Source of the DNA: Rhizobium leguminosarum | GTDB taxonomy: Bacteria; Pseudomonadota; Alphaproteobacteria; Rhizobiales; Rhizobiaceae | DNA length: 64,000 nucleotides | NCBI RefSeq assembly: GCF_017876795.1 | Contig: NZ_JAGIOR010000004.1 | Span: 248,001 to 312,000 of the forward strand | Reading direction: 5' to 3' | In this document: in pieces, positions 21,661 through 38,199 of the stretch | How the letters are laid out: every line of letters begins with the position of its first letter | Position numbering within the stretch: position 1 is the first letter of the stretch | Program-made: the position numbers and the translations under genes | Notes under the pieces: generated by a model | What the model was told of the DNA's origin: nothing | The model's input: only the letters and a program-made list of their open reading frames with translations | Databases searched by the model: none

Positions 21661-22550
21661 TGTCCGCCGATACCGCGCTGGCGGCACCGCGCCGTCACCA
21701 ATCTATCGACAGGAGGAGCTTCATCGGGCTCCTCCTCGTCGCCCTGCCGGTCTTCTTGGTTGGATGGCTGATCGTCTTTCCTATCTTTTCGGCGGTCGTC
21801 GGCACGATTTTCGTTCGAGGCCCTGATGGCGCGACGGAGTTCTCGCTCGCCTCCTACCGCTTCTTCTTTTCCGATGGCTACAGCCTCGGCAATTTGTGGC
21901 TGACGCTCTGGACCACTGCCGTCTGCGGCATCCTGCTTCTGGCGATCGGCCTTCCGATCGCGCTTTACCTTCGCTTCTCGCAAGGGCGCCTTGCTGCCTA
22001 CGTGCAGGCTCTTGCGATCTTCCCGATGTTCGTGCCGTCGATCATTCTTGCCTATGCGCTGATCAGGACCATCGGGCCGAACGGCACCATCGACCTGTTG
22101 CTGAACGCCGCCGGCCTGCCCAAGCTGCGCACGCCCTATCTGACACCGTGGGGACCGGTGATCGGCCTCGTCTGGGACAATCTTCCGCTGACGGTGCTGA
22201 TGCTGACGGCCGGGCTGTCCTCGGTTTCGAACAGCGCGATCGAGGCCGCCCGCGACGTCGGCGCAGGGCCGCTTCGGGTCTTCGTCTCGATCATTCTGCC
22301 GCGCATGGGCAATTCCCTGCTGGTCACCGCTTCCTTTGCGGTGCTCGGCATCTTCTCCGCCTTCACCCTACCCTATGTGCTCGGTCCGGCATCGCCGGAG
22401 ATGATGGGGCCGTTCATGCAGCGCACCTTTGCCGACATGAACGACCCGCTGAACGCCATGACCCAGGCGGTCATCACATTCGCCTTGTGCCTGGTCTTCG
22501 GCATCTTCTATATCCGGTCGATTGCTCGCAACCGCGAGGCCCGGCCATGA
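21660..22550 (+). CDS. ABC transporter permease 1 of Fe/polyamine/phosphonate-type importer
   Basis: A 296-residue permease with six predicted membrane segments, the first at about residues 20-45. The EAA loop reads EAARDVGAGPLRVFVSIILPRMG. The frame is open further upstream but 21660 is the right start: it forms a TGATG junction with the binding-protein stop and begins the conserved part. The end overlaps the second permease by four bases. Confidence 0.9.
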   Translation: MSADTALAAPRRHQSIDRRSFIGLLLVALPVFLVGWLIVFPIFSAVVGTIFVRGPDGATEFSLASYRFFFSDGYSLGNLWLTLWTTAVCGILLLAIGLPIALYLRFSQGRLAAYVQALAIFPMFVPSIILAYALIRTIGPNGTIDLLLNAAGLPKLRTPYLTPWGPVIGLVWDNLPLTVLMLTAGLSSVSNSAIEAARDVGAGPLRVFVSIILPRMGNSLLVTASFAVLGIFSAFTLPYVLGPASPEMMGPFMQRTFADMNDPLNAMTQAVITFALCLVFGIFYIRSIARNREARP

Positions 22551-23374
22551 GAACAGCCAAACCGGGCACCGGCCTTCGCTTCGACTGGATCGGCACGCTC
22601 TTCGCATGCCTGCTGACGCTGTTCATCGCGCTGCCGCTGATCGTCGTCGGCACATGGGCCTTCACCGAGGTCTGGCGTTACCCGTCGGTGATCCCGCAGC
22701 AATTCGGCCTGCGCTTCTGGGGCCAGACGCTGGCGCGCTCGGATGTCTGGGATGCTCTCTTGCTCAGTCTGCGGTTGACGGCGACGGTGACCGTTCTTTC
22801 CGCCGTCATCTGCCTTCCCGCTGCCTATGCTTTCGCGCGCATGCGCTTTCCGGGCAGAAATATCCTGTTCCTGTCGTTTCTCGCATCGCATGCCTTCCCG
22901 AAATTCGGCCTGCTCGTCGCCATTGCCGGCATCTTCCTGCGGCTTGGCCTGATCAGCACCTTCTGGGGCGTTGTGCTGATCCAGCTTGTCGGCACGCTCA
23001 TGCTGATGATCTGGATTCCGGTCGCAGCCTTCCAGAATGTCGACCGGCGCATGGAAGAGGCAGCACGTGACGCCGGCGCCACGCCGCTACGCGTCTTCTG
23101 GTCGATCACGCTGCCGCAGGCCGCACCCACGATCACCGCCGCCCTGCTTCTGACCTTCGTCGGCACCTTTTACGAAACCGAAGGCGCCTGGCTGATTGGC
23201 GCGCCTGGGATCCGCACCATGCCGGTGCTGATGATCAGCTTCATCAACAATCAAATCGTCGTGCAATACGGCGCCGTGCTCTCCGTGATGCTGTGGGTAC
23301 CGTCCTTCATCGCGCTGATGTTTGCGCGCCGCGTCATCGGCACCGGCGCGTTTGCGAGAGGTTTTGGCGCGTGA
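22547..23374 (+). CDS. ABC transporter permease 2 of Fe/polyamine/phosphonate-type importer
   Basis: A 275-residue permease with six membrane segments and the EAA loop EAARDAGATPLRVFWSITLPQAAP. The start at 22547 overlaps the first permease's stop; the much longer same-frame extension upstream is a shadow of permease 1. Having two separate permease genes, rather than the fused form common in iron importers, favours a polyamine- or phosphonate-like system, but weakly. Confidence 0.9.
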   Translation: MRTAKPGTGLRFDWIGTLFACLLTLFIALPLIVVGTWAFTEVWRYPSVIPQQFGLRFWGQTLARSDVWDALLLSLRLTATVTVLSAVICLPAAYAFARMRFPGRNILFLSFLASHAFPKFGLLVAIAGIFLRLGLISTFWGVVLIQLVGTLMLMIWIPVAAFQNVDRRMEEAARDAGATPLRVFWSITLPQAAPTITAALLLTFVGTFYETEGAWLIGAPGIRTMPVLMISFINNQIVVQYGAVLSVMLWVPSFIALMFARRVIGTGAFARGFGA

Positions 23375-23403
23375 GAGGCGTCAATTGAGGAAAGGTTCTG
23401 AGA

Positions 23404-24483
23404 ATGGCACATCTTACAATCGAGGGGGTTTCGAAGCTGTTCGGAACCACCTTTGCCGTTCGCGATTTTTCGCTCGAAGTGAGTGACGGCGAGCTCGTCT
23501 GCCTGCTCGGCCCTTCCGGTTCCGGCAAATCGACGCTCCTCAGAATGATTGGCGGCTTCGAGCGTCCGAGCGGCGGAATGATCTGCATCGACGGCAGGGA
23601 TGTGACGAGCCTGCCGCCCGAGCGGCGCCCGACCGGCATGGTGTTCCAGAGCCACGCGCTCTGGACGCATATGGATGTCTTCAACAACATCGCCTTCGGT
23701 CTGAAGCTTCGCCGGCTGCCGAAATCCGAAATCCGGCAACGTGTCGAGGATGCGCTCGATCTGGTCGGCCTTGGTGATTACGGGCGGCGGATGACGACGC
23801 AACTGTCGGGCGGGCAGCAGCAGCGCGTCGCGCTTGCCCGCTCGCTGGTGCTCGAGCCGAAGATCCTGCTGCTCGACGAACCCTTCGCCAGCCTTGACCA
23901 GCACCTGCGCGAAAGGCTGCGGGAAGAAGTGCGCGATATCCAGCAGCGCCTCGGCATCACCACGCTCTTCGTCACCCACGGGCAGGACGAGGCCTTGGCG
24001 CTCGCCGACCGCATCGTCGTCATGCGCGACGGGCGCACCGAGCAGATCGCGCCGCCGAGCACCATCTACCGGCAGCCGCAGACGGCCTTCGTCGCCGGCT
24101 TCATCGGCTCGATGAATTTCGTCCAGAGCCATACCAGAAACGGCGCCTGCGAGCATCCGCTGTTCCCGCTTGCGATCCCTATCGAGGACGGACCCGTGAC
24201 GCTGGCCACCCGCCCGGAAGCACTGACGATCCGGGCCTCGGACCGGCCGGATGCCGCGACAGTCCATCGCGTCGTCGATTTCGGCACCCATAAGATGGTC
24301 GATGTCGATCTTGCCGACGGCAGCCGGCTGAAGGCGATGGTGGCGCCGGACGATCGGATTCGGATCGGAATAAAGATCGAGCCCAGCTTCACCAGTTTTT
24401 TCGTCTTCCGCAACAATGAACTCATCCATCAGTCGATGACGGCAAAGGACGATGCGGAGCTTGGGCGGCTGTTGCCGGTCTAA
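23404..24483 (+). CDS. ABC transporter ATPase of Fe/polyamine/phosphonate-type importer
   Basis: A 359-residue ATPase: Walker A GPSGSGKS at residues 36-43, signature LSGGQQQR, Walker B ILLLDEPFASLD, His switch VTHGQDEALALADR. A C-terminal regulatory TOBE-like region begins at about residue 240. AAAGG precedes the ATG. Its stop is one base from the stop of the convergent IMPase gene, leaving no room for a separate terminator, so read-through or overlapping 3' ends between the two operons are likely. Confidence 0.92.
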   Translation: MAHLTIEGVSKLFGTTFAVRDFSLEVSDGELVCLLGPSGSGKSTLLRMIGGFERPSGGMICIDGRDVTSLPPERRPTGMVFQSHALWTHMDVFNNIAFGLKLRRLPKSEIRQRVEDALDLVGLGDYGRRMTTQLSGGQQQRVALARSLVLEPKILLLDEPFASLDQHLRERLREEVRDIQQRLGITTLFVTHGQDEALALADRIVVMRDGRTEQIAPPSTIYRQPQTAFVAGFIGSMNFVQSHTRNGACEHPLFPLAIPIEDGPVTLATRPEALTIRASDRPDAATVHRVVDFGTHKMVDVDLADGSRLKAMVAPDDRIRIGIKIEPSFTSFFVFRNNELIHQSMTAKDDAELGRLLPV

Positions 24484-24484
24484 A

Positions 24485-25318
24485 TTACGCCTTCGTCGCG
24501 AAGCCTTCCTTGAGCCAGGGATACAATGCCTTGCTGGCGGCGAGGATATCGCCCGGCCCGTCGACGTCGGCGCCGGAAAAACGGGTGACGATGCCGCCTG
24601 CCTCCTCGACCATCAGCGCCGAGGCGCCGAAATCATGGATCGAGAGCCCGTCCTCGAAGAATCCGTCCAGCCGGCCGCAGGCGACATAAGCGATCGACAG
24701 CGCCGCCGAGCCGAGGCGGCGCACGCCTGATGTGTTGGCCATCAGCCGTTTGATGGCGTCGAAATAGGCCTCTTCGGCGACCGCCTTGACCTGGCCCGGG
24801 ATCGGCAGGCCGGCGCCGACAAGCACGTTCTCGATATCGCCGACCTCGGCGCAGCGGATGCGCTCGCCGTCGAGGTAGGCGCCGCCGCCGACCTCGGCGC
24901 TGAACAGTTCGTCCTGCATCGCGTCATAGACGACGCCGGCGACGAGCCTGCCGCCTTCGGCGATTGCGATCGTCATGCCGAAATGCGGGAGGCCCCAGGC
25001 ATAATTGGTGGTGCCGTCGATCGGATCGATATAGATGATCGGCGTTTCCGGCCCGGCCGTGCGGTTGCCGACGGCTTCCTCGCCCTGAATGGCATAATCT
25101 GGAAAAGCCTTCGTCATCTCGTCGACGATGATCTGCTCGACGGCGACATCGACCTCGGTCTGATAGTCGCGCGGCGCCTTGGCCAGCATTTCGGCCGATG
25201 TCCGTCGCCGCAGCGAGCCGCGGGCGGTTTCGCCCGCCTTTATGGCCGTTTCGGCAAGCACGACGAGGCGGGACGATGCGGTCGGGGAAAGACGCGCGGA
25301 TATCGGGGAGGATGCCAT
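24485..25318 (-). CDS. Inositol monophosphatase-family phosphatase
   Basis: A 277-residue Mg-dependent phosphatase of the IMPase superfamily (inositol-1-phosphate, histidinol phosphate, sugar phosphates, 3'-phosphoadenosine phosphate). Metal ligands are visible: E80 in QGEE and the signature DPIDGTTNY with D98 and D101; a second Asp motif (IHDFGASALMVEEAGG) is near the C-terminus. No Shine-Dalgarno is obvious. It is separated by 177 bases from the kinase gene upstream on the same strand. It may be the last gene of the long minus-strand catabolic operon or have its own promoter. Substrate not determined. Confidence 0.85.
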   Translation of the reverse strand: MASSPISARLSPTASSRLVVLAETAIKAGETARGSLRRRTSAEMLAKAPRDYQTEVDVAVEQIIVDEMTKAFPDYAIQGEEAVGNRTAGPETPIIYIDPIDGTTNYAWGLPHFGMTIAIAEGGRLVAGVVYDAMQDELFSAEVGGGAYLDGERIRCAEVGDIENVLVGAGLPIPGQVKAVAEEAYFDAIKRLMANTSGVRRLGSAALSIAYVACGRLDGFFEDGLSIHDFGASALMVEEAGGIVTRFSGADVDGPGDILAASKALYPWLKEGFATKA

Positions 25319-25495
25319 GAGAAGAGTCCGGATTGCTGCTGATATGACGGGGTGAACGACGAGGCGCCCATCCCTTCGCAGAGGCTGATGATGGTTTGAT
25401 GAAGCGGTCCGCTGCGATTGCCGTCAAAGGCCATCCAACGGTCGACGAGAACGCAGAGTTTGTTTGTGAGCGTCAACATAATCGCGTCAAGCCGG

Positions 25496-26389
25496 CTATT
25501 TCAAGATCGTTTCAAGCTCGGAAACCGTAGGAAACGCCTTTCTGGTCCCGTGCCGAGAGACGGTGATAGCGGCGGCGGCGGCGGCATGCTCGATGGCCTG
25601 CCTGTCCAGCCGTCCCCCTCGCAGCCCACAGGATGCCAGCGCCACGGCCATAAATGTATCGCCCGCACCCGTCGTATCGACCACATCGCAGGCTCGGGCG
25701 GGCACTTCGATGCTATCGTGCCGATTGACAAGCGTCGCGCCGTCGCTGCCGAGGGTCAGAACGATTTCGCGCAGGCCCCGGCTCAGAAGATATTCGGCAG
25801 CATCGCTGCCCGTCGTTCCTGTCAGGGCCTGTGCCTCACCCTTGTTGAGGAATGCTATGTCGATCAACCCCCAAAGATCGGAGAAATAGGAACGCACCGG
25901 CGAGGGATTGAAGGCGGTGACCATGCCGATCGCTCTTGCCTGCTCCAGGATGTCGCGGGTCGCCTGATCGGACAGATTGCCCTGCAGCATCATCAGATCG
26001 CCTTGACCAGCCGTCGATAGGCTTCGTGTGACATGGGACAGGGACAGGCTCTGCGATGATTCCGTCGTCGTGACGATGGCATTTTCACCGCCCGGGAGCC
26101 GGAAGATGATCGAGACGTCGCTCGATGTACCTTCCATTTCGATCAGTTCGCTCTGAAGCGGTTCCTCCGCGAGGTAGTGGCGGATCGTCTCGGCCCTCGC
26201 ATCCCTGCCGACAGGTGCCACCAACGTTGTCGGAACGCCGCAGCGGGCCATGACGACCGCCTGGTTCGTGCCCTTGCCGCCGAGATCGCTGCCACCGGCA
26301 GTGCCGAGGATGGAGGCACCAATGACGGGCAGTTCGGAAACAGCGATGGTTTCGTCGATGGCGACATTGCCGACTATGTAGGCGCGCAT
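25496..26389 (-). CDS. PfkB-family carbohydrate/nucleoside kinase (ribokinase-like)
   Basis: A 297-residue sugar or nucleoside kinase. The N-terminal substrate-binding signature is GGSDLGGKGTNQAVVMARCG and the C-terminal signature is DTTGAGDTF with catalytic base D244 and anion hole GAG. The lid strand at residues 10-35 is present. In context it would phosphorylate the compound brought in by the ribose-type importer upstream in the same gene run, or an intermediate. Distances to the neighbours are small (24 bases after the TenA-like stop), supporting one transcript. The exact sugar cannot be read. Confidence 0.88.
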   Translation of the reverse strand: MRAYIVGNVAIDETIAVSELPVIGASILGTAGGSDLGGKGTNQAVVMARCGVPTTLVAPVGRDARAETIRHYLAEEPLQSELIEMEGTSSDVSIIFRLPGGENAIVTTTESSQSLSLSHVTRSLSTAGQGDLMMLQGNLSDQATRDILEQARAIGMVTAFNPSPVRSYFSDLWGLIDIAFLNKGEAQALTGTTGSDAAEYLLSRGLREIVLTLGSDGATLVNRHDSIEVPARACDVVDTTGAGDTFMAVALASCGLRGGRLDRQAIEHAAAAAAITVSRHGTRKAFPTVSELETILK

Positions 26390-26413
26390 GCATCCGCTTT
26401 CGCAAGGCTGAAG

Positions 26414-27061
26414 CTAAAGATAAGGCGCATTGTGAAAATCGATCTCAAGCTGCATCGCCTGGCCGAAGATCGCGCTCAATCGCGCCATTTCATCCTCTTC
26501 CAGGGTTTCTCCTGCCATGTCGAGTTCATTCTTCAGCCATTGCGCCTGGGCGGCGAAATTAGGATCGACATGCAGGTCGACCCATTCCTTCAGCATCGGA
26601 TCGCTGATCGAGCGGGTAGCCGCTTCCTTCGACCAGGTCCAATACATCCACTCGGCCGCAAACATCGCCGCGACCGTATCGAGGAAGCCGCCCTGGCGGG
26701 CGATCTCCAACATGCCGGCACGAAAGGCCTCGACCTCGGCGATGCCGGTGTCGAAGGACGAAGGATCAATACCGCGGCCGGCGAAAGTGCGTTCGAAATA
26801 GGTGATCTGCTCAGTTGCTAGCGCGTCGAGAACCGCGATCAGCCAGCGCTTCTGCGTCATCATCTTGGCGGTCGCCGCCGCATAAGCAAAGATCGAGATG
26901 GCGCTATCGACGAAAGCGCCTTCGTAGACGAGATAACGATCGAAAGCCTCCTTGCTCAACCTGTCATTCTTCACGTCCTCGACAAAACGGTGGCCAAGCA
27001 TCGTCCGGAAGACGGCGTCGTTCTCACGCAGAATGCGGTCTGAAAGGCTTTCCTCGCCCAT
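26414..27061 (-). CDS. TenA/THI-4-family protein without active-site cysteine
   Basis: A 215-residue all-helical protein of the TenA family. Classical TenA (thiaminase II) hydrolyses aminopyrimidines in thiamine salvage using a cysteine nucleophile. This protein contains no cysteine at all, so it cannot be that type and falls nearer the cysteine-less TenA_E class. Helical blocks include DRYLVYEGAFVDSAISIFAYA and FAAEWMYWTWSKEA, the latter carrying the conserved Glu and Trp of the pocket. ATG 27061 is chosen because BtpA ends two bases upstream and the homology starts there; the frame is open to 27133. No other thiamine gene is in the window, so a role in the local catabolic pathway is more likely. 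Confidence 0.8.
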   Translation of the reverse strand: MGEESLSDRILRENDAVFRTMLGHRFVEDVKNDRLSKEAFDRYLVYEGAFVDSAISIFAYAAATAKMMTQKRWLIAVLDALATEQITYFERTFAGRGIDPSSFDTGIAEVEAFRAGMLEIARQGGFLDTVAAMFAAEWMYWTWSKEAATRSISDPMLKEWVDLHVDPNFAAQAQWLKNELDMAGETLEEDEMARLSAIFGQAMQLEIDFHNAPYL

Positions 27062-27063
27062 GC

Positions 27064-27906
27064 TTAGCCCTCCAGTCCCGGTTCGGCGGCCGCCCGGAGG
27101 GCGCGCACCCGCTCGATATCGACAGGATTCCACCAGACGCCGCCATGTTTCAGCGATGAGGCGACGATGACGCCGTTGGTACGGCTCAGAATATCGACGA
27201 TATTGTCCTTATTGACGCCGGAGCCGACGAGCAGTGGCAGATGCGTCGCCGCGCCGATCTCCTCGATTTCCTCCATCGTCGCCGAATTGCCGGTTCGCTG
27301 GCCGGTGGCGATGACGCCGTCGGCATCGAAGAAGGCGAGGTCGCGCGTCAGTTCCTGGATTGAACGGTCGGCGACGATGGCGTGGCTGCCGTGTTTGACG
27401 TGGCTGTCGGCAAAAACTATGATGTGCTCGGCTCTGAGCAGCGAACGGTAGCGCATAGCTTCGGCCGCCCTGCCCTCCATGAAACCTTCATTGGCAACAT
27501 AGGCATTGGCCCATTGATTGACGCGGATGAATTTGGCGCCGCCGGCCATTGCGATGGCGAAGGCCGGGATCGGCGCATTGGCAAGTACGTTGACGCCGAG
27601 CGGAATGCCGGCCGCGCGGGCGATCCGGTCGGTGACGACGGACATGAAACCCGTCGTCTCGGGGCCGATATCCTCGGGCTTCGAGAATGGCACGTCGCCG
27701 TGATTTTCGATGATCAGCCCATGCAGGCCGCCTTCCATGCAGGCTTCGGCGTCGCGCATGCACGCGTCGTAGATAGCGTCCATCGCAGCAGCCCTGTAGC
27801 GGGGTGCGCCCGGGAAGGCTGGGCAGTGGATCATGCCGATCAGAACCTTGTCCCTGCCGAAGATGTCTCTGACGGCGTTGGACGATCTGTCCGAAATTTC
27901 CTGCAT
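27064..27906 (-). CDS. BtpA/SgcQ-family TIM-barrel protein
   Basis: A 280-residue (beta/alpha)8-barrel protein of the BtpA family, named for a cyanobacterial photosystem I factor but usually found in sugar catabolic clusters, such as SgcQ of E. coli. Family blocks: VLIGMIHCPAFPGAPRY, GLIIENHGDVPF, PLGVNVLANAP, IRVNQWANAYV, and the phosphate-binding-like LLVGSGVNKDNI followed by GVIVASSLKHGG. GGSGV-like loops at barrel ends suggest a phosphorylated ligand. ATG 27906 has AAGGGAA upstream. No enzymatic reaction is established for the family. Confidence 0.87.
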   Translation of the reverse strand: MQEISDRSSNAVRDIFGRDKVLIGMIHCPAFPGAPRYRAAAMDAIYDACMRDAEACMEGGLHGLIIENHGDVPFSKPEDIGPETTGFMSVVTDRIARAAGIPLGVNVLANAPIPAFAIAMAGGAKFIRVNQWANAYVANEGFMEGRAAEAMRYRSLLRAEHIIVFADSHVKHGSHAIVADRSIQELTRDLAFFDADGVIATGQRTGNSATMEEIEEIGAATHLPLLVGSGVNKDNIVDILSRTNGVIVASSLKHGGVWWNPVDIERVRALRAAAEPGLEG

Positions 27907-27941
27907 ATCATTCCCTTTCCAATTTCTGCCGCGAGCTGAAA

Positions 27942-28715
27942 TTACGCTCGGTTCTCGGTGAGCCAGCCGAGGATGTTCTTCCACAGCCGGCCGTAGCCTT
28001 CCCATTCGCAGAAGGCAGGCGAGAGCCAGTGCGGGCCGATATCCGACGTCCAGGCCGCCGTTCGCCCAGTGCCGTGCGTCCCGACGACGAGCAGCGGATG
28101 ACCGCCCTGATCCTCGGGCAGGCGCGCGACGACCTCGACATCCGCACGGTCGCGCACTTCGACCTCGTTGACGCCGAGAAGCACCGGCCAGGCGCCTTCG
28201 AGGCCCTGCATCGTCGGGTGCTTAGGCTTCACCACCTCGGCAACGGTTCCCTCGGGGATCTCGACGCGGTCGTCATAGGGCAGACAGGTGACGGGCAACG
28301 TGTTTTCGACAGGGGTGCGCCGCCAGCGCGCCTTGCCGTCGATGCCCTGGAAGGAGAAATAGCCGCCGACCATCAGCAGGCCGCCGCCCTTTTCCACCCA
28401 TGCCTTCAGCAGCTTCAGCCGGTTCGGCACCGTGCGCGAATGCAGCCACACATCCGGCGGCAGCAACAGCGAATTGGCGCCGATATCGGAGAGGATGATG
28501 GCATCGTAAGCGTCGAGCCCGGATAAATCGAAGGGGAATTTCTCCACCGCCTCATGCGCCGGCATATAGGTGAGTTCGAAGGCGCTGCCGGCGAGCGCCT
28601 TGACCAGCGGTTCTGCGCCGAGATGAAAGGTGACGCTGCCGAACTGGTCGAAGCCTTTGTAATGCGTGGCGGAGCTGACCCAGCTCTCGCCGACAAGGAG
28701 GATTTTCTTTGTCAT
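27942..28715 (-). CDS. Glutamine amidotransferase-like protein (PF07090/DUF1355 type)
   Basis: A 257-residue protein with a class I glutamine-amidotransferase-like fold. It begins KKILLVGESWVSSATHYKGFDQF and has AYDAIILSDIGANSLLLPP, then WVEKGGGLLMVGGYFSFQGIDGKARW, which occupies the nucleophile-elbow position but has Gly-Gly-Tyr instead of a cysteine. The lack of a Cys in that elbow argues against true glutaminase activity. The C-terminus holds GTHGTGRTAAWTSDIGPHW. Proteins of this type occur beside sugar importers but have no assigned reaction. It sits between the phosphotriesterase-family gene and the BtpA-family gene, with 32- and 35-base gaps. Confidence 0.8.
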   Translation of the reverse strand: MTKKILLVGESWVSSATHYKGFDQFGSVTFHLGAEPLVKALAGSAFELTYMPAHEAVEKFPFDLSGLDAYDAIILSDIGANSLLLPPDVWLHSRTVPNRLKLLKAWVEKGGGLLMVGGYFSFQGIDGKARWRRTPVENTLPVTCLPYDDRVEIPEGTVAEVVKPKHPTMQGLEGAWPVLLGVNEVEVRDRADVEVVARLPEDQGGHPLLVVGTHGTGRTAAWTSDIGPHWLSPAFCEWEGYGRLWKNILGWLTENRA

Positions 28716-28747
28716 GACCGTACCTGTGATCGATTGAATTGATGGAG

Positions 28748-29827
28748 CTAGGCTCCGGCATGAAAGACGCGGCGCGGATTGCCGCGCATCATCTCGTTAA
28801 GGACCGTCCCGTCGAGGCCGTGCCGCTGAAGACGGGGAAGGAAGTGGCGAAGGATGTAGGCGTAGCCATTGCCGCCGTAGTGCGTCAGCATCATCTTCAG
28901 AAAGACGTCATGCGACAGAAGAATCCGATCGAGATAACCGGCCTCGACGAGACGCACGATCGCGCGCGCAGCCTCCTCGTCGCTCGGGCACTGCACCTGC
29001 TGGTCGGCATAGAAGAAATCCATGCCGATCATGTCGTATTCGATAAAGGCGCCGCGCTCCGCCAGCTCGCTCTGATAGGCAATGTCGTCATGCGACGGGT
29101 TCATGTGGCAAAGGACAGTGTGACTGAGATCCGCACCCTCTTCTGCCACCACGTCGAGCACGCGATGGCCGAGGCGGAACCAGCCCGGCAGATGCACCAT
29201 CAGGGGAAGTCCGGTCCGCACCTGCGCCTGGGCAGCACCACGCAGCGATTTCTCTTCCTCGGAGGTGAAGTCCGAGGAGACGCCGATCTCGCCGATCAGG
29301 CCGATCCTGACGCCGGTGCCATCGACGCCTTCCCTCGCCTCACGGACAATTTCCCGCGCTATATCCTCGACGCTCATTGCCGCGACGCCTTCCGGATGCG
29401 AGGAGCCGAGATAATAACCCGCCCCCATCACGATGTTGAGGCCTGAAGCCTTCGAGATGCGCTGGAGCGCCAGCGGATCTCGGCCGATGCCCTTGCAGGT
29501 CGGCTCCACCACGGTGCGTCCGCCGGCGCCGGCGAAATCCTTGAGTTCGGCCACCGCCAGATGTTCGTCGTCGAGGGTGATATTGTGTTTGTTGACGAAG
29601 GGATCCTGCCGGAGTTCGCCGAGGATTTCCATGCAGACGAAGCTTTCGGCCAGATATTGCCGCTCCGGCGTCTTCGGCGCATGCCACCAGCAGCGGCAAT
29701 CGTTGAGGATATGCTCGTGCATCAGCGTCACGCCGAGCGCATCCGCCGAAACGGGGCCGGTGACCGTCATCACCTTGCCGGATCGGACATGCGCTTCGGA
29801 CAAACTATCTGCTGTGTGCTCGCTCAT
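28748..29827 (-). CDS. Phosphotriesterase-family metal hydrolase (Php/lactonase-like)
   Basis: A 359-residue amidohydrolase-superfamily enzyme of COG1735. Binuclear metal ligands visible: H37 and H39 (MHEH), a Glu in LIGEIGVSSD at the position of the carboxylated lysine of true phosphotriesterase, His in MVHLPGW, His in VLCHMNPSHDD and Asp in LLSHDVF. The bridging Glu is shared with E. coli Php. Characterised relatives include lactonases that act on sugar lactones and phosphosugar lactones, which would suit a sugar catabolic operon better than organophosphate hydrolysis. GAGGCG precedes the ATG. It follows the permease gene by four bases. Confidence 0.87.
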   Translation of the reverse strand: MSEHTADSLSEAHVRSGKVMTVTGPVSADALGVTLMHEHILNDCRCWWHAPKTPERQYLAESFVCMEILGELRQDPFVNKHNITLDDEHLAVAELKDFAGAGGRTVVEPTCKGIGRDPLALQRISKASGLNIVMGAGYYLGSSHPEGVAAMSVEDIAREIVREAREGVDGTGVRIGLIGEIGVSSDFTSEEEKSLRGAAQAQVRTGLPLMVHLPGWFRLGHRVLDVVAEEGADLSHTVLCHMNPSHDDIAYQSELAERGAFIEYDMIGMDFFYADQQVQCPSDEEAARAIVRLVEAGYLDRILLSHDVFLKMMLTHYGGNGYAYILRHFLPRLQRHGLDGTVLNEMMRGNPRRVFHAGA

Positions 29828-29831
29828 CGCC

Positions 29832-30836
29832 TCATCCTTTCCTGCCCAACCCGAAACGGAAATTGGCCGTGAAGATGCGGGTGTTCAGCCAGATGGCGAC
29901 GAGAATGATGGCGCCGGTGACGATCTGGGTGAAGAACGGCGATATGTGCATCAGGATCAGGCCGTTGCCGATGACGGCGATGGTCAGCGTGCCGAGCACC
30001 GTGCCGAGGATGGTGCCACGTCCGCCCATCAGCGATGTCCCGCCGAGAACGACGGCCGCAATCACCTGCAGTTCGAAACCGACGGCGGCATTGGACGAGC
30101 CGGAGCCGAGCCGGGCGGCAATCAGCAGGCCAGCGACCGCGCAAGCGATGCCGGAGATGATGTAGACCGAGGCGATGATCCATTTGGCGGGCATGCCGAC
30201 ACGCCGCGCCGCTTCCATGTTGGAACCGACCGCCACGACCTGCCGGCCGTATTTGGTCGCTGTGATGATCACATAGCCGAGAATGGCGATGATGAGGGCG
30301 ATGATTGCGGGGATCGGGAAGCTCAGGATTTCGCCCCGGCCGAGCGCGAAGAAGCCCGGTGCATCCTTGATCGGGATGGAGTAGCCCTGGGTCAGATAGA
30401 GTGCCAGGCCGCGCAGGATCGAAAGGCCGGCAAGCGTGACGATGAAGGCCGGAATGCCCTGATAGGCGACGAACCAGCCCTGAACCAGACCCATGAAGGC
30501 GCCGAGCACGATCATGCCGATAACCACGGACGGCCAGGGAATTCCCATCGCCATGACGATCGCCGCAACCGCATTGACGAGGGCGACCTGCGAGCCGACC
30601 GACAGATCGATACCGCCGGTGATGATGACGAAGGTCATGGCGATGGCAACGATCAGGATGGGAGCGGCCTGCCGGACGATATTCAGGATGTTGCCGAGTG
30701 TGAAGAAGGTCTCGCTGCCGATCGAGAAGAAGATCATGCAGGCCAGGAAGAAGATGGCGATCGACAGGACCTGCGCATGTTCGCCGAAGAAATCGGCGGC
30801 GCGAGATCCGTGGCCGCGTTCCGTGTAAGCCGTCAT
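29832..30836 (-). CDS. Ribose-type ABC transporter permease (RbsC family)
   Basis: A 334-residue permease of the CUT2 (ribose/xylose/fructose) class with about ten hydrophobic segments. Family landmarks: ITGGIDLSVGSQVALVNA in the first third, IPAFIVTLAGLSILRGLAL in the middle, and VLGGTSLMGGRGTILGTVLG near the C-terminus. The start codon overlaps the stop of the ATPase gene by four bases, and the phosphotriesterase-family gene follows after four bases, so it is internal to a tight operon. Confidence 0.93.
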   Translation of the reverse strand: MTAYTERGHGSRAADFFGEHAQVLSIAIFFLACMIFFSIGSETFFTLGNILNIVRQAAPILIVAIAMTFVIITGGIDLSVGSQVALVNAVAAIVMAMGIPWPSVVIGMIVLGAFMGLVQGWFVAYQGIPAFIVTLAGLSILRGLALYLTQGYSIPIKDAPGFFALGRGEILSFPIPAIIALIIAILGYVIITATKYGRQVVAVGSNMEAARRVGMPAKWIIASVYIISGIACAVAGLLIAARLGSGSSNAAVGFELQVIAAVVLGGTSLMGGRGTILGTVLGTLTIAVIGNGLILMHISPFFTQIVTGAIILVAIWLNTRIFTANFRFGLGRKG

Positions 30837-31654
30837 TGTCTGGCTCCTTCACCGACGATCAAATGAACGAGATCCTCGAGGTTGGTGCTGCCGATCTGCC
30901 GCTCGGCCACCTTCGTGCCCTCATACATCACCGCAATGCGATCGCAGACCCGGAAGAGATCCTGCAGCCGGTGGGTGATAAGGATCACCGAGACCCCGTT
31001 CGCCTTGACGCGGTTGATCAATGCGAGAACCGCTTCGACCTCGGCAACGGCAAGTGCCGATGTCGGCTCGTCCATGATCAGCACCTTCGGCTTGAAGGAG
31101 GCCGCGCGCGCGATGGCGATCGCCTGACGCTGTCCGCCGGAGAGCTGCGCGACCTTGCCGGTCAGTCTCGGGATGCGGATTTCCAGCGAATCCAGCATCT
31201 TGCGAGCTTCGGACAGCATTGTCCGGGTGTCGAGAAACGGGCCGCGGCTGAGTTCGCGGCCGAGGAAGAGATTGCCGACGACATCGATGTGGTCGCAGAG
31301 GCTGAGATCCTGGAACACCATTTCGATGTTCCTACCGCGCGCATCCGCAGGGCCGGAGAAGCGGACCTCCTCGCCTTCCATGGTGATCGTGCCGGCATCG
31401 GGAATGTAGGTCCCCGAGATGATTTTCGTCAGTGTCGACTTGCCGGCGGCGTTGTCGCCGACGAGGCCCAGGCATTCGCCGGGGAAGATGTCGAGGTCGA
31501 CGCCGCGCAGCGCCTGATGCGAGCCGAAGGACTTGCGGATACCGCGCAGCGAGATGCGCGGATCGGATCGGGTGGCGCCGGATGTTGCGGTTCCGGAGGG
31601 CGTGAGCCCTCCGGAACCGGCGGAGGCGATGTGATGCTGTCCGCTTTCGATCAT
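30833..31654 (-). CDS. Single-domain ATPase of ribose-type importer
   Basis: A 273-residue ABC ATPase with one nucleotide-binding domain instead of the two found in RbsA, like the FrcA subgroup, so two copies should assemble. Walker A GDNAAGKST, signature LSGGQRQA, Walker B VLIMDEPTSAL. Residues 1-28 form a Gly/Ser/Thr-rich extension (MIESGQHHIASAGSGG...) with no homology. That stretch is encoded by a perfect 14-base inverted repeat, so the extension may simply be the translation of an mRNA hairpin. ATG 31654 overlaps the binding-protein stop in an ATGA; no ATG, GTG or TTG start occurs between the hairpin and the ABC domain. Confidence 0.9.
   Translation of the reverse strand: MIESGQHHIASAGSGGLTPSGTATSGATRSDPRISLRGIRKSFGSHQALRGVDLDIFPGECLGLVGDNAAGKSTLTKIISGTYIPDAGTITMEGEEVRFSGPADARGRNIEMVFQDLSLCDHIDVVGNLFLGRELSRGPFLDTRTMLSEARKMLDSLEIRIPRLTGKVAQLSGGQRQAIAIARAASFKPKVLIMDEPTSALAVAEVEAVLALINRVKANGVSVILITHRLQDLFRVCDRIAVMYEGTKVAERQIGSTNLEDLVHLIVGEGARQ
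31588..31619. other. Perfect 14-base stem-loop inside the start of the ATPase gene
   Basis: CGGTTCCGGAGGGC, loop GTGA, GCCCTCCGGAACCG. It lies 31 bases beyond the binding-protein stop, in the position where sugar importer operons often carry an mRNA-stabilising intercistronic hairpin, but here it is within codons of the next gene. Confidence 0.75.
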
Positions 31655-32604
31655 TTGAAGACGGCCCGGTACGGCTCGACATTCTCCTTGGTCACGATGG
31701 TGATTGGCACCGAGATCGTCTTGGTGACGGCATCGCCGGCCGAGGCCTTCACCAGCGCGTCGACGGCGGCACCGCCCATCGCGGCCGGATCCTGCTGGAC
31801 CACGGCGACGACGAAGCCGGCATCGATGCCGGCAATGGCTTCGGCAGTCAGATCCCAGCCGAATACCTTGATCTTATCCTGCTTTCCCTGGCTCTGGACA
31901 GCGGCGATCGCCCCCATCAGCGCCGGCTCGCCGGTGGCGTAGATCGCGGTCAGGTCGGGATTGGGGGTGATCAGGTTCTCAGCCGCCGCAAGCGCGTTGT
32001 CCTGGATGTTCTGCCCATCGACGACGCCGGCCATCTCGATGCCGTCGACACCTTTCAGGGTCTTCTCGAAGCCGTCTTGACGGATGTTCTGGATGAACGA
32101 GTTCAGTGCCCCGACAACGCCGAGCTTGGCCTTGCCGCCCATGTTCGCCTTGACGTAATCGAGAAAGTATTTGCCCATGTCGGCGCCGGCTGCGGCGTTG
32201 TCGACGCCGATCTGCGCCTTCTGCGGACCATCAGGCAGGATGGCGTCGATGGCAACGACAGGAATGCCGGCGTCGGCCGCCTGCTTGACGGCCGGCATGA
32301 TGCCGTTGACGTCGATCGCCACGACGGCAAGACCAGAGACCTTTTCCTGGACGTAAGTTTCGATCGCGCTGTTCTGCGCGGTCGTCTCGTTGTTGGCGTT
32401 GAAGATCACCAGTTTGACGCCGGCGGCATCGGCTGCCTTCTGGGCGCCCGCATTCATCTGGTTGAAGAAAAGCGCCTGCTGGTTGATCTGCACCAGTGCG
32501 ACGGTCTTCTTTTCCTGCGCCTGGGCGCCGGACAGGCCGATGACGGTCAATGCGGTGAACCCGGCGGCTGCGATCATCGTTCGTCTTGTCAGATTCAGTG
32601 TCAT
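31651..32604 (-). CDS. Ribose-type periplasmic sugar-binding protein (RbsB family)
   Basis: A 317-residue receptor of the periplasmic-binding/LacI fold. A signal peptide with a twin-arginine-like start (TRRTMIAAAGFTALTVIGLSGAQAQ) precedes the mature protein beginning KKTVALVQINQQALFFNQM. Typical pieces are NNETTAQNSAIETYVQEKVSG, AVVAIDVNGIMPAVKQAADAG and PDLTAIYATGEPALMGAIAA. ATG 32604 has AGAGGATGAG upstream. It follows the LacI gene by 37 bases and precedes the ATPase with an ATGA overlap. It probably binds a sugar or sugar-like compound; the ligand is unknown. Confidence 0.92.
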   Translation of the reverse strand: MTLNLTRRTMIAAAGFTALTVIGLSGAQAQEKKTVALVQINQQALFFNQMNAGAQKAADAAGVKLVIFNANNETTAQNSAIETYVQEKVSGLAVVAIDVNGIMPAVKQAADAGIPVVAIDAILPDGPQKAQIGVDNAAAGADMGKYFLDYVKANMGGKAKLGVVGALNSFIQNIRQDGFEKTLKGVDGIEMAGVVDGQNIQDNALAAAENLITPNPDLTAIYATGEPALMGAIAAVQSQGKQDKIKVFGWDLTAEAIAGIDAGFVVAVVQQDPAAMGGAAVDALVKASAGDAVTKTISVPITIVTKENVEPYRAVFK

Positions 32605-32641
32605 GTTCTCATCCTCTTTTGGTTTTTTGACGTTGCTTTTC

Positions 32642-33664
32642 TTATTTCGCGGGCGGCGCAACGGAGTTCCGCACCACGATTTCGACAGGCACCAGTTCCT
32701 CCGAAGCGGATGGTTTCCACTCGTGCCAATTGGTTTCCAGAAGCAGCTCCAGCGACCGCCGGCCGATCTGCCGGACCGGCTGGCGGATCGCCGTCAGCGG
32801 CGGTGCAAAAAGATGAAGCGGACCGACATCATCGAAGCCGATGACCGAGATGTCAGCAGGGATCGAGACGCCCCGGCTTCCGAAGACCTCGACCAGCCCG
32901 ATGGCGATCTCGTCGGAGCTGGCGAAGATCGCCGTCGCCTTTCGATCTCCCGAGAGATATTCGAGCGCGGCCGCACGGCCGTATTCGATCGTATATTCGC
33001 CGGCGTAGCGATCGGCCCGGGCCAATTCGCCATGCCGTTCCTTAAGTGCCTTCAGCAGGCCGTCATAACGCCTGCGGGCGCTGATCATGCGCTCGTCACC
33101 GCCGATGAACAGGACATGGCGGTGGCCCTGCCCGGCCAGGTGTTGCCCGGCGAGATAACCGCCCTGCTCATTGTCGCAGAACAGCTTCGGCGCCTTCGAA
33201 TCGGGAATGTCCTCATCGACGATGATGACCTTGCCGGTGCCGTTGATGAGGGCGGCAAGCGCGCCGTCGTCGGGGTGGTTGGTGACGAAGATCAGGCCGT
33301 CGACGTGATTGCGCTCGATCAGCTGGAGATATTCGATCTCGCGCCCCGGCCGGTTGAGCGTGGCATGCAGCGAGACAGCGAGTTTCTTTTCGTCGGCCGC
33401 TTGCTCGACGGCGGCGACGAGGGTCGCGAAGAAAGGATTGGCGATATCGGGAACGACGAGGCCGATCGTGTCAGAACGCCCCCTGCTTAGGCGGCGCGCA
33501 TGCGGGTTCGGCCGGTAGTTCAGCGTCTTGATCGCATCCTCGATACGCTTCTTGGTCTGAAACGGTAGGTCGAGGCTACCGTTGACGAAACGGGACACGG
33601 TGGTGACCGAGACGCCGGCGGCGGCCGCAACATCCTTCAAGCTCGGTGTCGTTCCCTTGGCCAT
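32642..33664 (-). CDS. LacI-family transcriptional regulator of the ribose-type importer operon
   Basis: A 340-residue repressor. The N-terminal helix-turn-helix and hinge are LKDVAAAAGVSVTTVSRFVNG followed by YRPNPHARRL; the effector domain (about 60-340) has the periplasmic-binding fold (DTIGLVVPDIANPFFATLVAAVEQAA). It is the first gene of the minus-strand run, so it is likely to repress its own operon. Two LacI-type operator sequences lie 15-43 bases before its start codon. The effector is probably the imported compound or its phosphorylated form. Confidence 0.93.
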   Translation of the reverse strand: MAKGTTPSLKDVAAAAGVSVTTVSRFVNGSLDLPFQTKKRIEDAIKTLNYRPNPHARRLSRGRSDTIGLVVPDIANPFFATLVAAVEQAADEKKLAVSLHATLNRPGREIEYLQLIERNHVDGLIFVTNHPDDGALAALINGTGKVIIVDEDIPDSKAPKLFCDNEQGGYLAGQHLAGQGHRHVLFIGGDERMISARRRYDGLLKALKERHGELARADRYAGEYTIEYGRAAALEYLSGDRKATAIFASSDEIAIGLVEVFGSRGVSIPADISVIGFDDVGPLHLFAPPLTAIRQPVRQIGRRSLELLLETNWHEWKPSASEELVPVEIVVRNSVAPPAK

Positions 33665-33678
33665 TGATCAGACCTATT

Positions 33679-33706
33679 GTAAAGCGGTTTAGTAAAGCGC
33701 TTTACA
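33679..33706. promoter_or_regulatory. Tandem LacI-type operators
   Basis: A perfect 14-base palindrome GTAAAGCGCTTTAC (33692-33705), flanked by A, which makes AGTAAAGCGCTTTACA, directly adjoins a second copy TGTAAAGCGGTTTA (33679-33692) with mismatches in one half. A minus-strand -35 TTGACA is at 33735-33730, so the sites would cover the transcription start. Confidence 0.85.
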
Positions 33707-33920: not shown

Positions 33921-34991
33921 TTATATGACGTGGTCCGTCGATGCATCGAAGAGATGGATCTGGGTCGGATCGATCGAAAGTCCGATCTTATCTCCCGGTT
34001 TCACCCTGTCGCGGCGCGTCTCGACGATCGTTAGCTCCGGCTGGGTCTCCGCGACGATGAAGGTCGACGAGCCGGTCGATTCGACGAAGGCGATCGGCAC
34101 ATCGAAGCTGCCATGCCCGGGCTCGACGACGCCGATATGTTCGGGCCGGATGCCGGCGACGAGTTTGCGTCCGGGCTCGATGGCGCGGCTTAGCGCAAGC
34201 GTCTGCTTCACCGCGCCGAAATCCAGGATCAGGCTCTTGCCGTCTTCGGCGCCAATCGCGGGAATGAAATTCATTGCCGGCGAACCAATGAAACCGGCGA
34301 CGAACCGGTTCACCGGGCGGTCGTAGAGGTCCAGCGGCGCGCCTTGCTGTTCGATGATACCGTCGCGCATCACCACCACATGATCGGCCATCGTCATCGC
34401 TTCGACCTGGTCGTGCGTGACGTAGACGAAGGTTGCGTTCAGCCGGTCGTGCAGCGCCCGGATTTCCTTGCGCATGTGGACGCGCAGCGCCGCATCGAGA
34501 TTGGACAGCGGCTCGTCGAACAGGAAGGCCTTCGGATGGCGGATGATGGCGCGGCTCATGGCGACGCGCTGGCGCTGGCCGCCGGACAGTTCGCGGGGAT
34601 AGCGCTTCAGCAGATGCGACAGACCGGTTGTCGCCGCCACGTCCTCGGCGGCCTTCTTGGCCTCGGCCTTGGCAATGCCGCGGATGCGCAGGCTATAGGT
34701 CAGGTTCTCTTCCACCGTCATATGCGGATAGAGCGCATAGGACTGGAACACCATGGCGACGTCTCGCTTGCGCGGCGGCACGCCGTTCATCAGCTCGCCG
34801 GCGATCCTCAAATCACCGGTCGAGATGCTTTCGAGGCCGGCAAGCGAGCGCAGCAGCGTGGACTTGCCGCAGCCCGAAGGGCCGACGAGCGCGACGAAAG
34901 TTCCCTTGGCAATCGACAGGTCGATGTTCTTCAGGGCGTGGAAGGCGCCGTAATATTTATTGACGCCTCTGAGCTCGATCTGCGTGGTCAT
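33921..34991 (-). CDS. Sugar ABC transporter ATPase (MalK/UgpC family, CUT1)
   Basis: A 356-residue ATPase energising the CUT1 importer encoded upstream on the same strand. Walker A GPSGCGKST, signature LSGGQRQR, Walker B FLFDEPLSNLD, switch VTHDQVEAMTMAD. The C-terminal MalK-type regulatory domain begins near residue 240 and includes VAGIRPEHIGV. ATG 34991 overlaps the permease stop in an ATGA; the frame is open to 35099 only as a shadow. It is the last gene of the operon. Confidence 0.94.
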   Translation of the reverse strand: MTTQIELRGVNKYYGAFHALKNIDLSIAKGTFVALVGPSGCGKSTLLRSLAGLESISTGDLRIAGELMNGVPPRKRDVAMVFQSYALYPHMTVEENLTYSLRIRGIAKAEAKKAAEDVAATTGLSHLLKRYPRELSGGQRQRVAMSRAIIRHPKAFLFDEPLSNLDAALRVHMRKEIRALHDRLNATFVYVTHDQVEAMTMADHVVVMRDGIIEQQGAPLDLYDRPVNRFVAGFIGSPAMNFIPAIGAEDGKSLILDFGAVKQTLALSRAIEPGRKLVAGIRPEHIGVVEPGHGSFDVPIAFVESTGSSTFIVAETQPELTIVETRRDRVKPGDKIGLSIDPTQIHLFDASTDHVI

Positions 34992-35815
34992 TTGAGGGCT
35001 CCAGAGGTGAGGCCGGATACGATGCGGCGCTGCAAGAGAACGAAGATGGCAAGGATCGGCGTCACATACATCGTGGCGTAGGCCATGATGTTGTTCCACT
35101 CGTTGGTGTTCGGCCCCATGAAGGAATTGAGGCCGACACTGGCCGGCTGAAGCTCAGCCGCCTGGATCATCGACTTCGAATAGACGAATTCGCCGAAGGC
35201 CTGCATGAAGATCAGGATGGCGCTGACGAGGATACCGTTGCGGGCGAGCGGCAGCACGATGTTGAAGAAGGCGCCGACGCGCGAATTGCCATCGACCAGG
35301 GCCGCCTCCTCCAGTTCCTGGGGAACGCTCATGAAGGTGGCGCGCACCAGGATGACGAAGAAAGGCATGCTCTTTGCGGCGACCGCGATAATGACCGCGA
35401 GCCGCGGATAGGACAGCATGCCGATCTGCGAGAAACCGACGAAGATCGGCGTGATCATCAGCGATGCCGGCAGAACCTGCAGCATCAGGATCAGAAACAG
35501 ACCAATATCCACCCAGACATTGCGGTATCTGGCGAGCACATAGGCGCAACCGACGCCCAGCAGCGCGATGAGCGCCATTGAGCCGAGCGCAATGACCAGG
35601 GAATTCCAGAGATAGCGGCCCATGTCGCGGCTTTCCCAGACATAGGTATAGGTGCGCCATTGCGGGGCGGTCGGCCAGAAGCTCGGCGGTGTGGCGAACA
35701 TCTCCGAGCCGCTTTTGAGCGCAGTGATGTACATCCAGTAGAGCGGGAAGAGATAGATCGCCGCCATGACGATCGAGATTGCCAGCATCAGGCGGTCGCG
35801 GTTCGTCGTAATCAT
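34988..35815 (-). CDS. CUT1 sugar ABC transporter permease (MalG family)
   Basis: A 275-residue permease with six membrane segments, the first at residues 8-28. The EAA loop reads EAALVDGNSRVGAFFNIVLPLARNG, normal for MalG proteins. Its start overlaps the MalF-type permease stop and its end overlaps the ATPase start, each by four bases, so the three products are translationally coupled. Confidence 0.93.
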   Translation of the reverse strand: MITTNRDRLMLAISIVMAAIYLFPLYWMYITALKSGSEMFATPPSFWPTAPQWRTYTYVWESRDMGRYLWNSLVIALGSMALIALLGVGCAYVLARYRNVWVDIGLFLILMLQVLPASLMITPIFVGFSQIGMLSYPRLAVIIAVAAKSMPFFVILVRATFMSVPQELEEAALVDGNSRVGAFFNIVLPLARNGILVSAILIFMQAFGEFVYSKSMIQAAELQPASVGLNSFMGPNTNEWNNIMAYATMYVTPILAIFVLLQRRIVSGLTSGALK

Positions 35816-36714: not shown

Positions 36715-36789
36715 GCGTCCTCCGATGTTCCGAACGGGGCCGCCTGACGCATGATGCGGAAGACGGCCCCTGCCGGGAGGAAAGAGTTG

Positions 36790-36850
36790 GATGGCATGTG
36801 CCATCGATGGATGATTTTGGTTTCCTCTTCTCCCCAGCGGAGAGAAGAGG
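36790..36850. other. Two inverted repeats between binding-protein and permease genes
   Basis: GATGGCA-TG-TGCCATC (36790-36805) and CCTCTTCTC / GAGAAGAGG with a nine-base loop (36824-36850). They lie in the 191-base gap after the CUT1 binding-protein stop. They could stabilise the binding-protein mRNA and lower permease expression. The second resembles palindromic units scattered in rhizobial intergenic regions, but that was not checked. Confidence 0.6.
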
Positions 36851-36905
36851 GAGCAAGGAGCCAACCCGGCCCTTCGCTTTCGCTTCGGCTATGCCGAACC
36901 GCTCC

Positions 36906-38138: not shown

Positions 38139-38162
38139 GGTTCTCCTCCTTTGGGTTATCCC

Positions 38163-38193
38163 CGTTTCCGGCAATTCCTCCTTGCCGGAAACG
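38163..38193. other. Perfect 12-base stem-loop ahead of the CUT1 binding-protein gene
   Basis: CGTTTCCGGCAA / TTGCCGGAAACG with a seven-base loop. It stands between the isomerase stop and the binding-protein start. On the minus strand the loop reads GGAGGAA, a Shine-Dalgarno-like sequence; the functional AGGAGG lies further on, just before the ATG. Possible attenuator or RNA processing site. Confidence 0.65.
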
Positions 38194-38199
38194 ATATTA

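What the first reader, a model, noticed from the sequence alone, without database searches (positions are those of the whole stretch)
24485..33664. Long minus-strand operon of an apparently undescribed catabolic pathway
The order is LacI regulator, ribose-type receptor, ATPase, permease, phosphotriesterase-family hydrolase, PF07090 protein without the elbow Cys, BtpA-family barrel, Cys-free TenA-like protein and PfkB kinase. Gaps are 37 bases or overlaps throughout, and an IMPase-family gene follows after 177 bases. Three of the enzymes (BtpA, PF07090, Cys-less TenA) have no assigned reaction in sugar metabolism. Known COG1735 relatives include sugar-lactone and phosphosugar-lactone hydrolases, and PfkB kinases and IMPases handle phosphorylated sugars. 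A plausible reading is uptake of a sugar or N-glycoside, phosphorylation, C-N or ring cleavage, then dephosphorylation. The seen facts are order and families; the pathway is inference.
Basis: partly seen in the sequence, partly recalled or inferred. Interest (0 to 1): 0.85.

Follow-up and report, generated by a model that had tools for sequence, protein, structure and literature searches.

The report
Rhizobial operon for unknown ribose conjugate
A soil bacterium carries a conserved nine-gene set, under one dedicated switch, that seems to import and break down an unidentified sugar-containing compound, perhaps a ribose joined to something through an amide-like bond.

Summary
Families and order are confirmed. 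In 80 species-genome loci chosen by the PF07090 gene, BtpA is in 80, PTE, ATPase and permease in 77, PfkB in 76, LacI and receptor in 75, TenA in 63, but the IMPase in only 11. In 121 genomes of the window's family searched gene by gene, PTE, BtpA and PF07090 occur together in 12, TenA in 3 of these. A tandem LacI operator lies upstream of lacI in 75 of 75 loci that have it. So eight genes, often with TenA, form one dedicated unit; the IMPase is a lineage-specific neighbour. PfkB, PF07090 and PTE also form the uncharacterised rikA locus of Salmonella, whose kinase phosphorylates ribose, perhaps as a side activity (PMC13432705). Related clusters carry many different amide hydrolases. Best reading: uptake and catabolism of an amide- or ester-bearing ribose conjugate. 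TenA is of the Glu, not Cys, type; BtpA is modelled as a TIM barrel like enzymes of phosphorylated substrates. Substrate and reactions are unproven. Lactone and thiamin readings are not supported. It is a larger version of a known but unexplained locus.

The parts
33679..33705 (-). tandem LacI operator (two overlapping 14-bp palindromes, consensus GTAAANCGNTTTAC) upstream of lacI
   Evidence: 2 matches with at most 1 mismatch in the window, 0 in 100 shuffles; one exact place in the 7.58-Mb genome; the control pattern read backwards also occurs once; 74 of 75 loci within 200 bp upstream of the assigned lacI start, the 75th, L110, directly before the true start of a lacI whose frame is interrupted
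32642..33664 (-). LacI-family repressor
   Evidence: Pfam LacI + Peripla_BP_1/3; present in 75 of 80 loci
31651..32604 (-). RbsB-type periplasmic receptor
   Evidence: Pfam Peripla_BP_4; best PDB sequence 5hsg, 389 bits, next 98.6
30833..31654 (-). ABC ATPase, single nucleotide-binding domain
   Evidence: Pfam ABC_tran; nearest NCBIfam RbsA, first half only
29832..30836 (-). ABC permease, ribose type
   Evidence: Pfam BPD_transp_2; nearest NCBIfam ribose permease, below cut-off
28748..29827 (-). PTE-family metallohydrolase
   Evidence: Pfam PTE; metal ligands H37, H39, E180, H212, H241, D307 at least 97% conserved in 86 sequences; best PDB 3k2g, 593 bits
27942..28715 (-). PF07090 protein (named glutamine amidotransferase, nucleophile Cys absent)
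   Evidence: Pfam GATase1_like 422.6 bits; PDB 2gk3, 3soz; alignment A1
27064..27906 (-). BtpA/SgcQ-family barrel
   Evidence: Pfam BtpA, TIGR00259 220.6 over cut-off 153.4; model pLDDT 81.4, pTM 0.85; fold matches
26414..27061 (-). TenA-family protein of the Glu type (E47, E137, E206 conserved, no Cys)
   Evidence: Pfam TENA_THI-4; below thiaminase II cut-off; conservation
25496..26389 (-). PfkB kinase, nearest to ribokinase
   Evidence: Pfam PfkB; TIGR02152 188.9 bits, cut-off 299.65; best PDB 3i3y/3ikh, 225 bits
24485..25318 (-). IMPase-family gene; lineage-specific neighbour, probably not part of the core
   Evidence: Pfam Inositol_P; 177-base gap; 11 of 80 loci

Best explanation
A single LacI-controlled catabolic operon for an amide- or ester-bearing ribose conjugate (most likely an N-riboside or N-acyl/ureido ribosylamine). 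The RbsB-type receptor and its ABC transporter import the intact compound and it, or a product, lifts the repressor from the tandem operator. In the cell the PTE metallohydrolase (in many relatives together with an M20 carbamoylase/deacylase) removes an acyl, carbamoyl or ester part; TenA of the Glu type hydrolyses a C-N bond of the aglycone; PF07090 acts at the bond between sugar and aglycone; the ribokinase-like PfkB phosphorylates the ribose or riboside; BtpA, a TIM barrel like those of enzymes with phosphorylated substrates, isomerises or splits the phosphorylated pentose so that it enters the pentose phosphate pool. Shown: gene set, conservation, conserved operator at one place, families, key residues. 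Inferred: ribose, amide theme, repressor-operator contact, order of steps and every individual reaction.
For: One unit: gaps of 2-37 bases or overlaps over nine genes; presence counts in 80 loci; PTE, BtpA and PF07090 in the same 12 of 121 family genomes, PTE-BtpA overlap p 1e-15 without correction for kinship; the operator before lacI in 75 of 75 loci with no further site in 1.37 Mb of their sequence. Ribose: receptor, permease, ATPase and kinase are nearest to ribose families, all below cut-off; kinases of eight other clusters with PF07090 score best as ribokinase, one above the cut-off; the Salmonella kinase of the PfkB-PF07090-DMT-PTE locus phosphorylates ribose (PMC13432705); ribokinase-LacI-PF07090 with a ribose-type ABC in Monoglobus and PF07090-LacI-ribokinase beside PRPP synthetase in Arthrobacter. 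Riboside: one PF07090 gene sits with a nucleoside hydrolase, PnrA-like receptor, cytidine deaminase and creatininase. Amide theme: M20 carbamoylase type, M20 and ArgE/DapE, prolyl iminopeptidase, penicillin amidase and amidase, nitrilase; M20-type genes in 12 of 16 PF07090 windows against 1 of 16 control windows. BtpA: its best fold matches are mostly enzymes of phosphorylated substrates.
Against: No substrate was tested. The PfkB is below the ribokinase cut-off, and the RikA authors say that its ribose kinase activity may be off-target. The tested PTE relatives are reported as esterases, not amidases (titles). TenA is missing from 17 of 80 loci and 8 of 80 lack both TenA and the carbamoylase; in the family draw only 3 of the 12 PTE-BtpA-PF07090 genomes have a close TenA, and in the phylum windows TenA is 2 of 16 against 0 of 16, not significant. 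Five of 17 PF07090 genomes in the family draw lack the PTE. A Chloroflexota PF07090 gene sits in a D-allose operon, a Shinella one has no annotated kinase of this kind in the stretch shown, and Monoglobus has a protein named for homoserine lactonase next to PF07090. The Rhodococcus and Arthrobacter genes stand among aldehyde dehydrogenases and may serve another purpose. BtpA's fold list also holds barrels without a phosphate substrate, such as dihydrodipicolinate synthase.
Confidence: 0.4

Rival explanations
1. Sugar-lactone or phosphosugar-lactone pathway: PTE opens a lactone, PfkB phosphorylates, IMPase dephosphorylates.
For: Some PTE-family proteins are phospho-furanose lactonases (model NF045706); the transporter and kinase are sugar types; the Monoglobus PF07090 cluster has a protein named N-acyl homoserine lactonase family.
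Against: Phospho-furanose lactonase model 63.7 bits against a 630 cut-off; IMPase in 11 of 80 loci; no oxidoreductase that would make a lactone is in the operon; PTE closest to 3k2g, 9efa and 3rhg.
Confidence: 0.12
2. Thiamin or thiamin-analogue salvage: TenA, an M20 deacylase and a PfkB-like kinase act as in the salvage of degraded thiamin.
For: TenA plus M20 deacylase plus ribokinase-fold kinase is the recalled gene set of that salvage; the S. meliloti M162 version lies beside genes that read like thiE, thiG, thiO and thiC.
Against: TenA is 47.6 bits against the 130 cut-off of thiaminase II and lacks Cys; TenA is not constant (63 of 80; 3 of 12); the M162 locus has no TenA hit; kinases are nearest to ribokinase, not HMP kinase.
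Confidence: 0.1
3. Metabolite repair or detoxification: the operon removes damaged nucleosides or ribose adducts rather than feeding growth.
For: Patchy distribution (17 of 121 family genomes have a close PF07090 gene); PF07090-ribokinase genes among flavin monooxygenase, aldehyde dehydrogenase and amidohydrolase genes in Arthrobacter; esterase relatives of the PTE.
Against: A dedicated ABC importer with receptor and a LacI-type repressor point to uptake of an outside compound.
Confidence: 0.15
4. Uptake and catabolism of a glycated amino acid, glycated peptide or opine (Amadori-type compound), with kinase and deglycase steps.
For: Opp-type transporters in PF07090 clusters of Roseomonas and of G550; peptidase-type genes in E. 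coli and Shinella clusters; PfkB family includes fructoselysine kinase (weak match).
Against: No SIS-type deglycase is annotated in the records read; fructoselysine kinase model 47.7 bits against 247; kinases prefer the ribokinase model.
Confidence: 0.18

Closest known systems
rikA locus of Salmonella and other Enterobacterales (rikA-STM3548-STM3549-STM3550; PMC13432705, abstract and passages seen)
   Same: PfkB kinase, PF07090 protein and PTE-family protein encoded together; the authors call the pathway unknown. The same four-gene order is in E. coli ATCC 25922 and an E. albertii plasmid.
   Different: Enterobacteria have a DMT transporter; the window has LacI, an ABC importer with receptor, BtpA and TenA. 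The PTEs are distant (38.6% in an E. coli plasmid copy).
Ribose operon (rbs)
   Same: RbsB-type receptor, RbsC-type permease, PfkB ribokinase-like enzyme, LacI-type regulator.
   Different: Single-domain ATPase and four extra enzymes; none of the proteins reaches the rbs cut-offs.
PTER (N-acetyltaurine / N-acetyl-beta-alanine hydrolase; PMC11374699, PMC13311154, passages seen)
   Same: Same PTE family and metal ligands; second-best PDB match 9efa is named phosphotriesterase-related protein.
   Different: The substrate-contacting R204, R233 and H300 are G215, P244 and F309 here.
PTE-family esterases Rsp3690 (R. sphaeroides) and Pmi1525 (P. mirabilis)
   Same: Tested members of the family; 3k2g, from R. 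sphaeroides, aligns nearly end to end at 593 bits, and 3rhg, named Pmi1525, at 227 bits.
   Different: Their natural substrates are not known to me; the two Biochemistry papers are not held; that 3k2g is Rsp3690 is inferred.
BtpA/SgcQ family
   Same: TIGR00259 above cut-off.
   Different: Far below the photosystem I biogenesis model (180.5 against 400).

Membership tests
rikA-type PfkB-PF07090-PTE locus | PfkB, PF07090 and PTE genes together | tested here: met
   window; in the 80 loci PF07090 80, PTE 77, PfkB 76
rikA-type PfkB-PF07090-PTE locus | DMT-family transporter in the locus | tested here: not met
   ABC importer instead; DMT in E. coli and E. albertii loci
Ribokinase RbsK (TIGR02152) | score over curated cut-off 299.65 | tested here: not met
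   188.9 bits
Phospho-furanose lactonase (NF045706) | score over curated cut-off 630 | tested here: not met
   63.7 bits
PTER N-acetyltaurine hydrolase | six metal ligands (H26, H28, E169, H201, H230, D298 of mouse PTER) | tested here: met
   H37, H39, E180, H212, H241, D307, at least 97% conserved in 86 sequences
PTER N-acetyltaurine hydrolase | substrate contacts R204, R233, H300 | tested here: not met
   G215, P244, F309 in the alignment with 9efa; residue roles from PMC11374699 passages; that 9efa is PTER is taken from its name
Thiaminase II, TenA Cys type (TIGR04306) | catalytic Cys and score over 130 | tested here: not met
   47.6 bits; no Cys column over 30% in 72 sequences
TenA Glu type (TenA_E) | Glu in place of the catalytic Cys, second Glu near the C-terminus | tested here: met
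   E137 and E206 at least 97% conserved in 72 sequences, shared with five other TenA relatives; the definition and the place of the Cys are recalled
Class I glutamine amidotransferase | nucleophile Cys at the elbow | tested here: not met
   S76-D77-I78-G79 at the place I take for the elbow; no invariant Cys in 10 diverse members
BtpA/SgcQ (TIGR00259) | score over cut-off 153.4 | tested here: met
   220.6 bits
Phosphate-binding TIM-barrel enzymes (TrpA, HisA/F, TrpF, OMPDC, KDPG aldolase) | barrel with C-terminal phosphate-binding loops | tested here: inconclusive
Thiamin salvage operon | substrate is a thiamin breakdown product | not testable with these tools
   needs assay

The most novel reading that the evidence does not exclude
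PF07090 proteins are a new class of enzyme that splits sugar from aglycone without the amidotransferase Cys; with a ribokinase, a BtpA barrel and interchangeable amide hydrolases they form an undescribed route, present in Pseudomonadota and with PF07090-ribokinase pairs also in Actinomycetota and Bacillota, that salvages ribose and nitrogen from acyl- or ureido-ribosides such as ring-opened or modified nucleosides. BtpA/SgcQ would then be a phosphopentose enzyme rather than a photosystem assembly factor. Rhizobia would use it on compounds from roots or nodules.
Probability: 0.22. Interest if true: 0.75.

Novelty: new variant of a known kind. Interest (0 to 1): 0.55.

Why it matters
Protein families without an assigned reaction (PF07090, BtpA/SgcQ and this TenA of the Glu type) are tied to one another, to a ribokinase-like kinase and to a dedicated importer in a unit that is easy to test: one receptor, one repressor, one operator. 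A ligand for the receptor would give a function to all of them and perhaps to the rikA locus of Enterobacterales, reported in 2026 as a possible pathway for an unknown carbon source. DNA like the PF07090 gene is in 1940 of 5426 E. coli genomes, nearly all by a partial match of about 71% identity, so the question is not confined to rhizobia. The probable PF07090 ortholog of R. leguminosarum 3841 has been detected in proteomes.
Full report
What was checked. The window lies at C4:248001-312000 of a 7.58-Mb genome; the closest TenA relatives are Rhizobium, 96% to a R. phaseoli protein. The ten ORFs of the finding are present on the minus strand with the families stated. Gaps from lacI to pfkB are 37 bases or less, or overlaps; the IMPase follows after 177 bases. 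Promoter and terminator scans do not separate the genes: 6 promoter-like sites against 2.7 by chance and 4 terminator-like against 6.5; one weak promoter-like site (25504-25475) lies at the start of the pfkB-IMPase gap.

Conservation. By blastp against the window proteins, of 80: PF07090 80 (by construction), BtpA 80, PTE, ATPase and permease 77 each, PfkB 76, LacI 75, receptor 75, TenA 63, IMPase 11, the last only in the 11 loci most like the window. L052, L073 and L116 lack PTE and transporter. An M20 hydrolase of the hydantoinase/carbamoylase family (best PDB 5tp4) is in 38 loci by ORF clustering or 43 by tblastn. TenA and this hydrolase do not replace one another: 34 both, 29 TenA only, 9 hydrolase only, 8 neither. 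In the window's own genome the best match to this hydrolase is 38% identical and elsewhere. Annotated plasmid records show the same set in R. johnstonii 3841, Phyllobacterium, Neorhizobium, Pannonibacter, Paracoccus, Ponticoccus, Pantoea dispersa and, partly broken, Klebsiella pneumoniae.

Co-occurrence without an anchor. The four proteins were searched one by one in the same draw of 121 genomes of the window's family: PF07090 in 17 (E at most 1e-90), PTE in 12 (1e-90), BtpA in 13 (1e-80), TenA in 3 (1e-50). The 12 PTE genomes all have PF07090 and BtpA; the one further BtpA genome (G550) has more distant PF07090 genes; five PF07090 genomes lack PTE; the 3 TenA genomes lie within the 12, so TenA is the least constant partner. 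Overlap p values are 1e-15 (PTE-BtpA) and 5e-13 (PTE-PF07090), not corrected for kinship. In 11 of the 12 the PTE and PF07090 matches are neighbours on one contig; in G622 they are on two contigs.

Control for neighbourhood. In a draw of 398 genomes of the phylum, 16 had PF07090. Sixteen windows of 19.5 kb around it, from 15 genomes without the window's own, were compared with 16 windows elsewhere on the same contigs: PfkB 9 against 1, PTE 9 against 0, BtpA 8 against 0, M20 types 12 against 1, ribose-type receptors 14 against 0, LacI 7 against 0, TenA 2 against 0 (not significant), IMPase 0 against 1.

Regulation. Upstream of lacI lies a tandem operator, GTAAAGCGCTTTAC overlapping a second copy (33679-33705). 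The exact 14-bp consensus occurs at one place in the whole genome; the control pattern read backwards also occurs once, so it is the place, not the number, that counts. Of 75 loci with lacI, 74 have a site with at most one mismatch within 200 bp upstream and 69 have two; no other site was found in 1.37 Mb of these loci except two in L110, and these stand directly before the true start of an interrupted lacI frame. This argues for one dedicated, self-controlled unit. That LacI binds there is inferred.

The known core. PMC13432705 (abstract and passages seen) reports that Salmonella STM3547 (RikA), a PfkB kinase, phosphorylates ribose, and that rikA, STM3548 (PF07090), STM3549 (DMT transporter) and STM3550 (PTE) are conserved in some Enterobacterales, perhaps a pathway for an unknown carbon source; the authors add that the ribose activity may be off-target. 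E. coli ATCC 25922 and an E. albertii plasmid have this order. The operon in the window is a larger version of that core with its own importer and regulator and with BtpA and TenA. I found no paper that joins the two.

Clues to the substrate. Nine further kinases, eight from clusters with PF07090 and one beside a Haloferax BtpA, were scanned: ribokinase is the best model in eight and ribose-1-phosphate kinase in the Haloferax one; one is above the ribokinase cut-off. PF07090 stands with ribokinase, a ribose-type ABC and a homoserine-lactonase-family protein in Monoglobus, with ribokinase and PRPP synthetase in Arthrobacter, with a nucleoside hydrolase, PnrA-like receptor, cytidine deaminase and creatininase in one genome of the same class, and with allose genes in a Chloroflexota plasmid. 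Amide-hydrolase families of many kinds recur. This is why I commit to an amide- or ester-bearing ribose conjugate, at 0.40, with the compound itself open.

Expression. PMC7900000 and PMC7105596 (passages) list pRL90221 of R. leguminosarum 3841, 28.31 kDa, in one of them named putative glutamine amidotransferase, as lowered in proteomes of gpxA (nodules) and gmcA mutants. The PF07090 protein of that strain's locus has a computed mass of 28,305; the identity is an inference from mass, name and plasmid.

Verdict. Interest 0.55.

Noticed in passing
L037-L116 (80 loci): In 63 of 80 loci the best kinase match lies on the strand opposite to PF07090; in 60 it faces away from btpA across a gap of 21 to 46 bases (median 25), too short for a usual divergent promoter.
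   Followed up: partly
L032:7783-8961, L053:2559-3740, L030:7768-8994: PfkB kinases fused to DNA-binding domains of two kinds: LacI type in Rhizobium relatives, DeoR type in E. coli. They stand beside PF07090, in R. etli 8C-3 also an AI-2-like ABC transporter and an ArgE/DapE deacylase: a second, related system.
   Followed up: partly
L170 (Arthrobacter crystallopoietes pLDW-10): PF07090, LacI, ribokinase, PRPP synthetase, nucleoside hydrolase and nicotinate phosphoribosyltransferase lie among flavin monooxygenase, aldehyde dehydrogenase and amidohydrolase genes.
   Followed up: no
L027:14000-18500 (S. meliloti M162 pSymB): The TenA-less version of the cluster ends beside genes that read like thiE, thiG, thiO and thiC on the opposite strand (from the translations, not scanned).
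   Followed up: no
L019 (K. pneumoniae CP125156.1): The cluster is decayed: PF07090 is split in two frames and an IS1 element lies at the kinase gene.
   Followed up: no
window 20515-24483 and 33921-38237: The operon is flanked on both sides by other ABC transporters with SBP_bac_1/8 receptors.
   Followed up: partly
G000:C2:839839-840597: The genome has a second BtpA-family gene that scores higher on the Pfam model (293 bits) than the one in the operon.
   Followed up: no
R. johnstonii 3841 pRL9, L025: pRL90221, probably the PF07090 gene, is a protein seen in published proteomes, one of them of nodules.
   Followed up: partly
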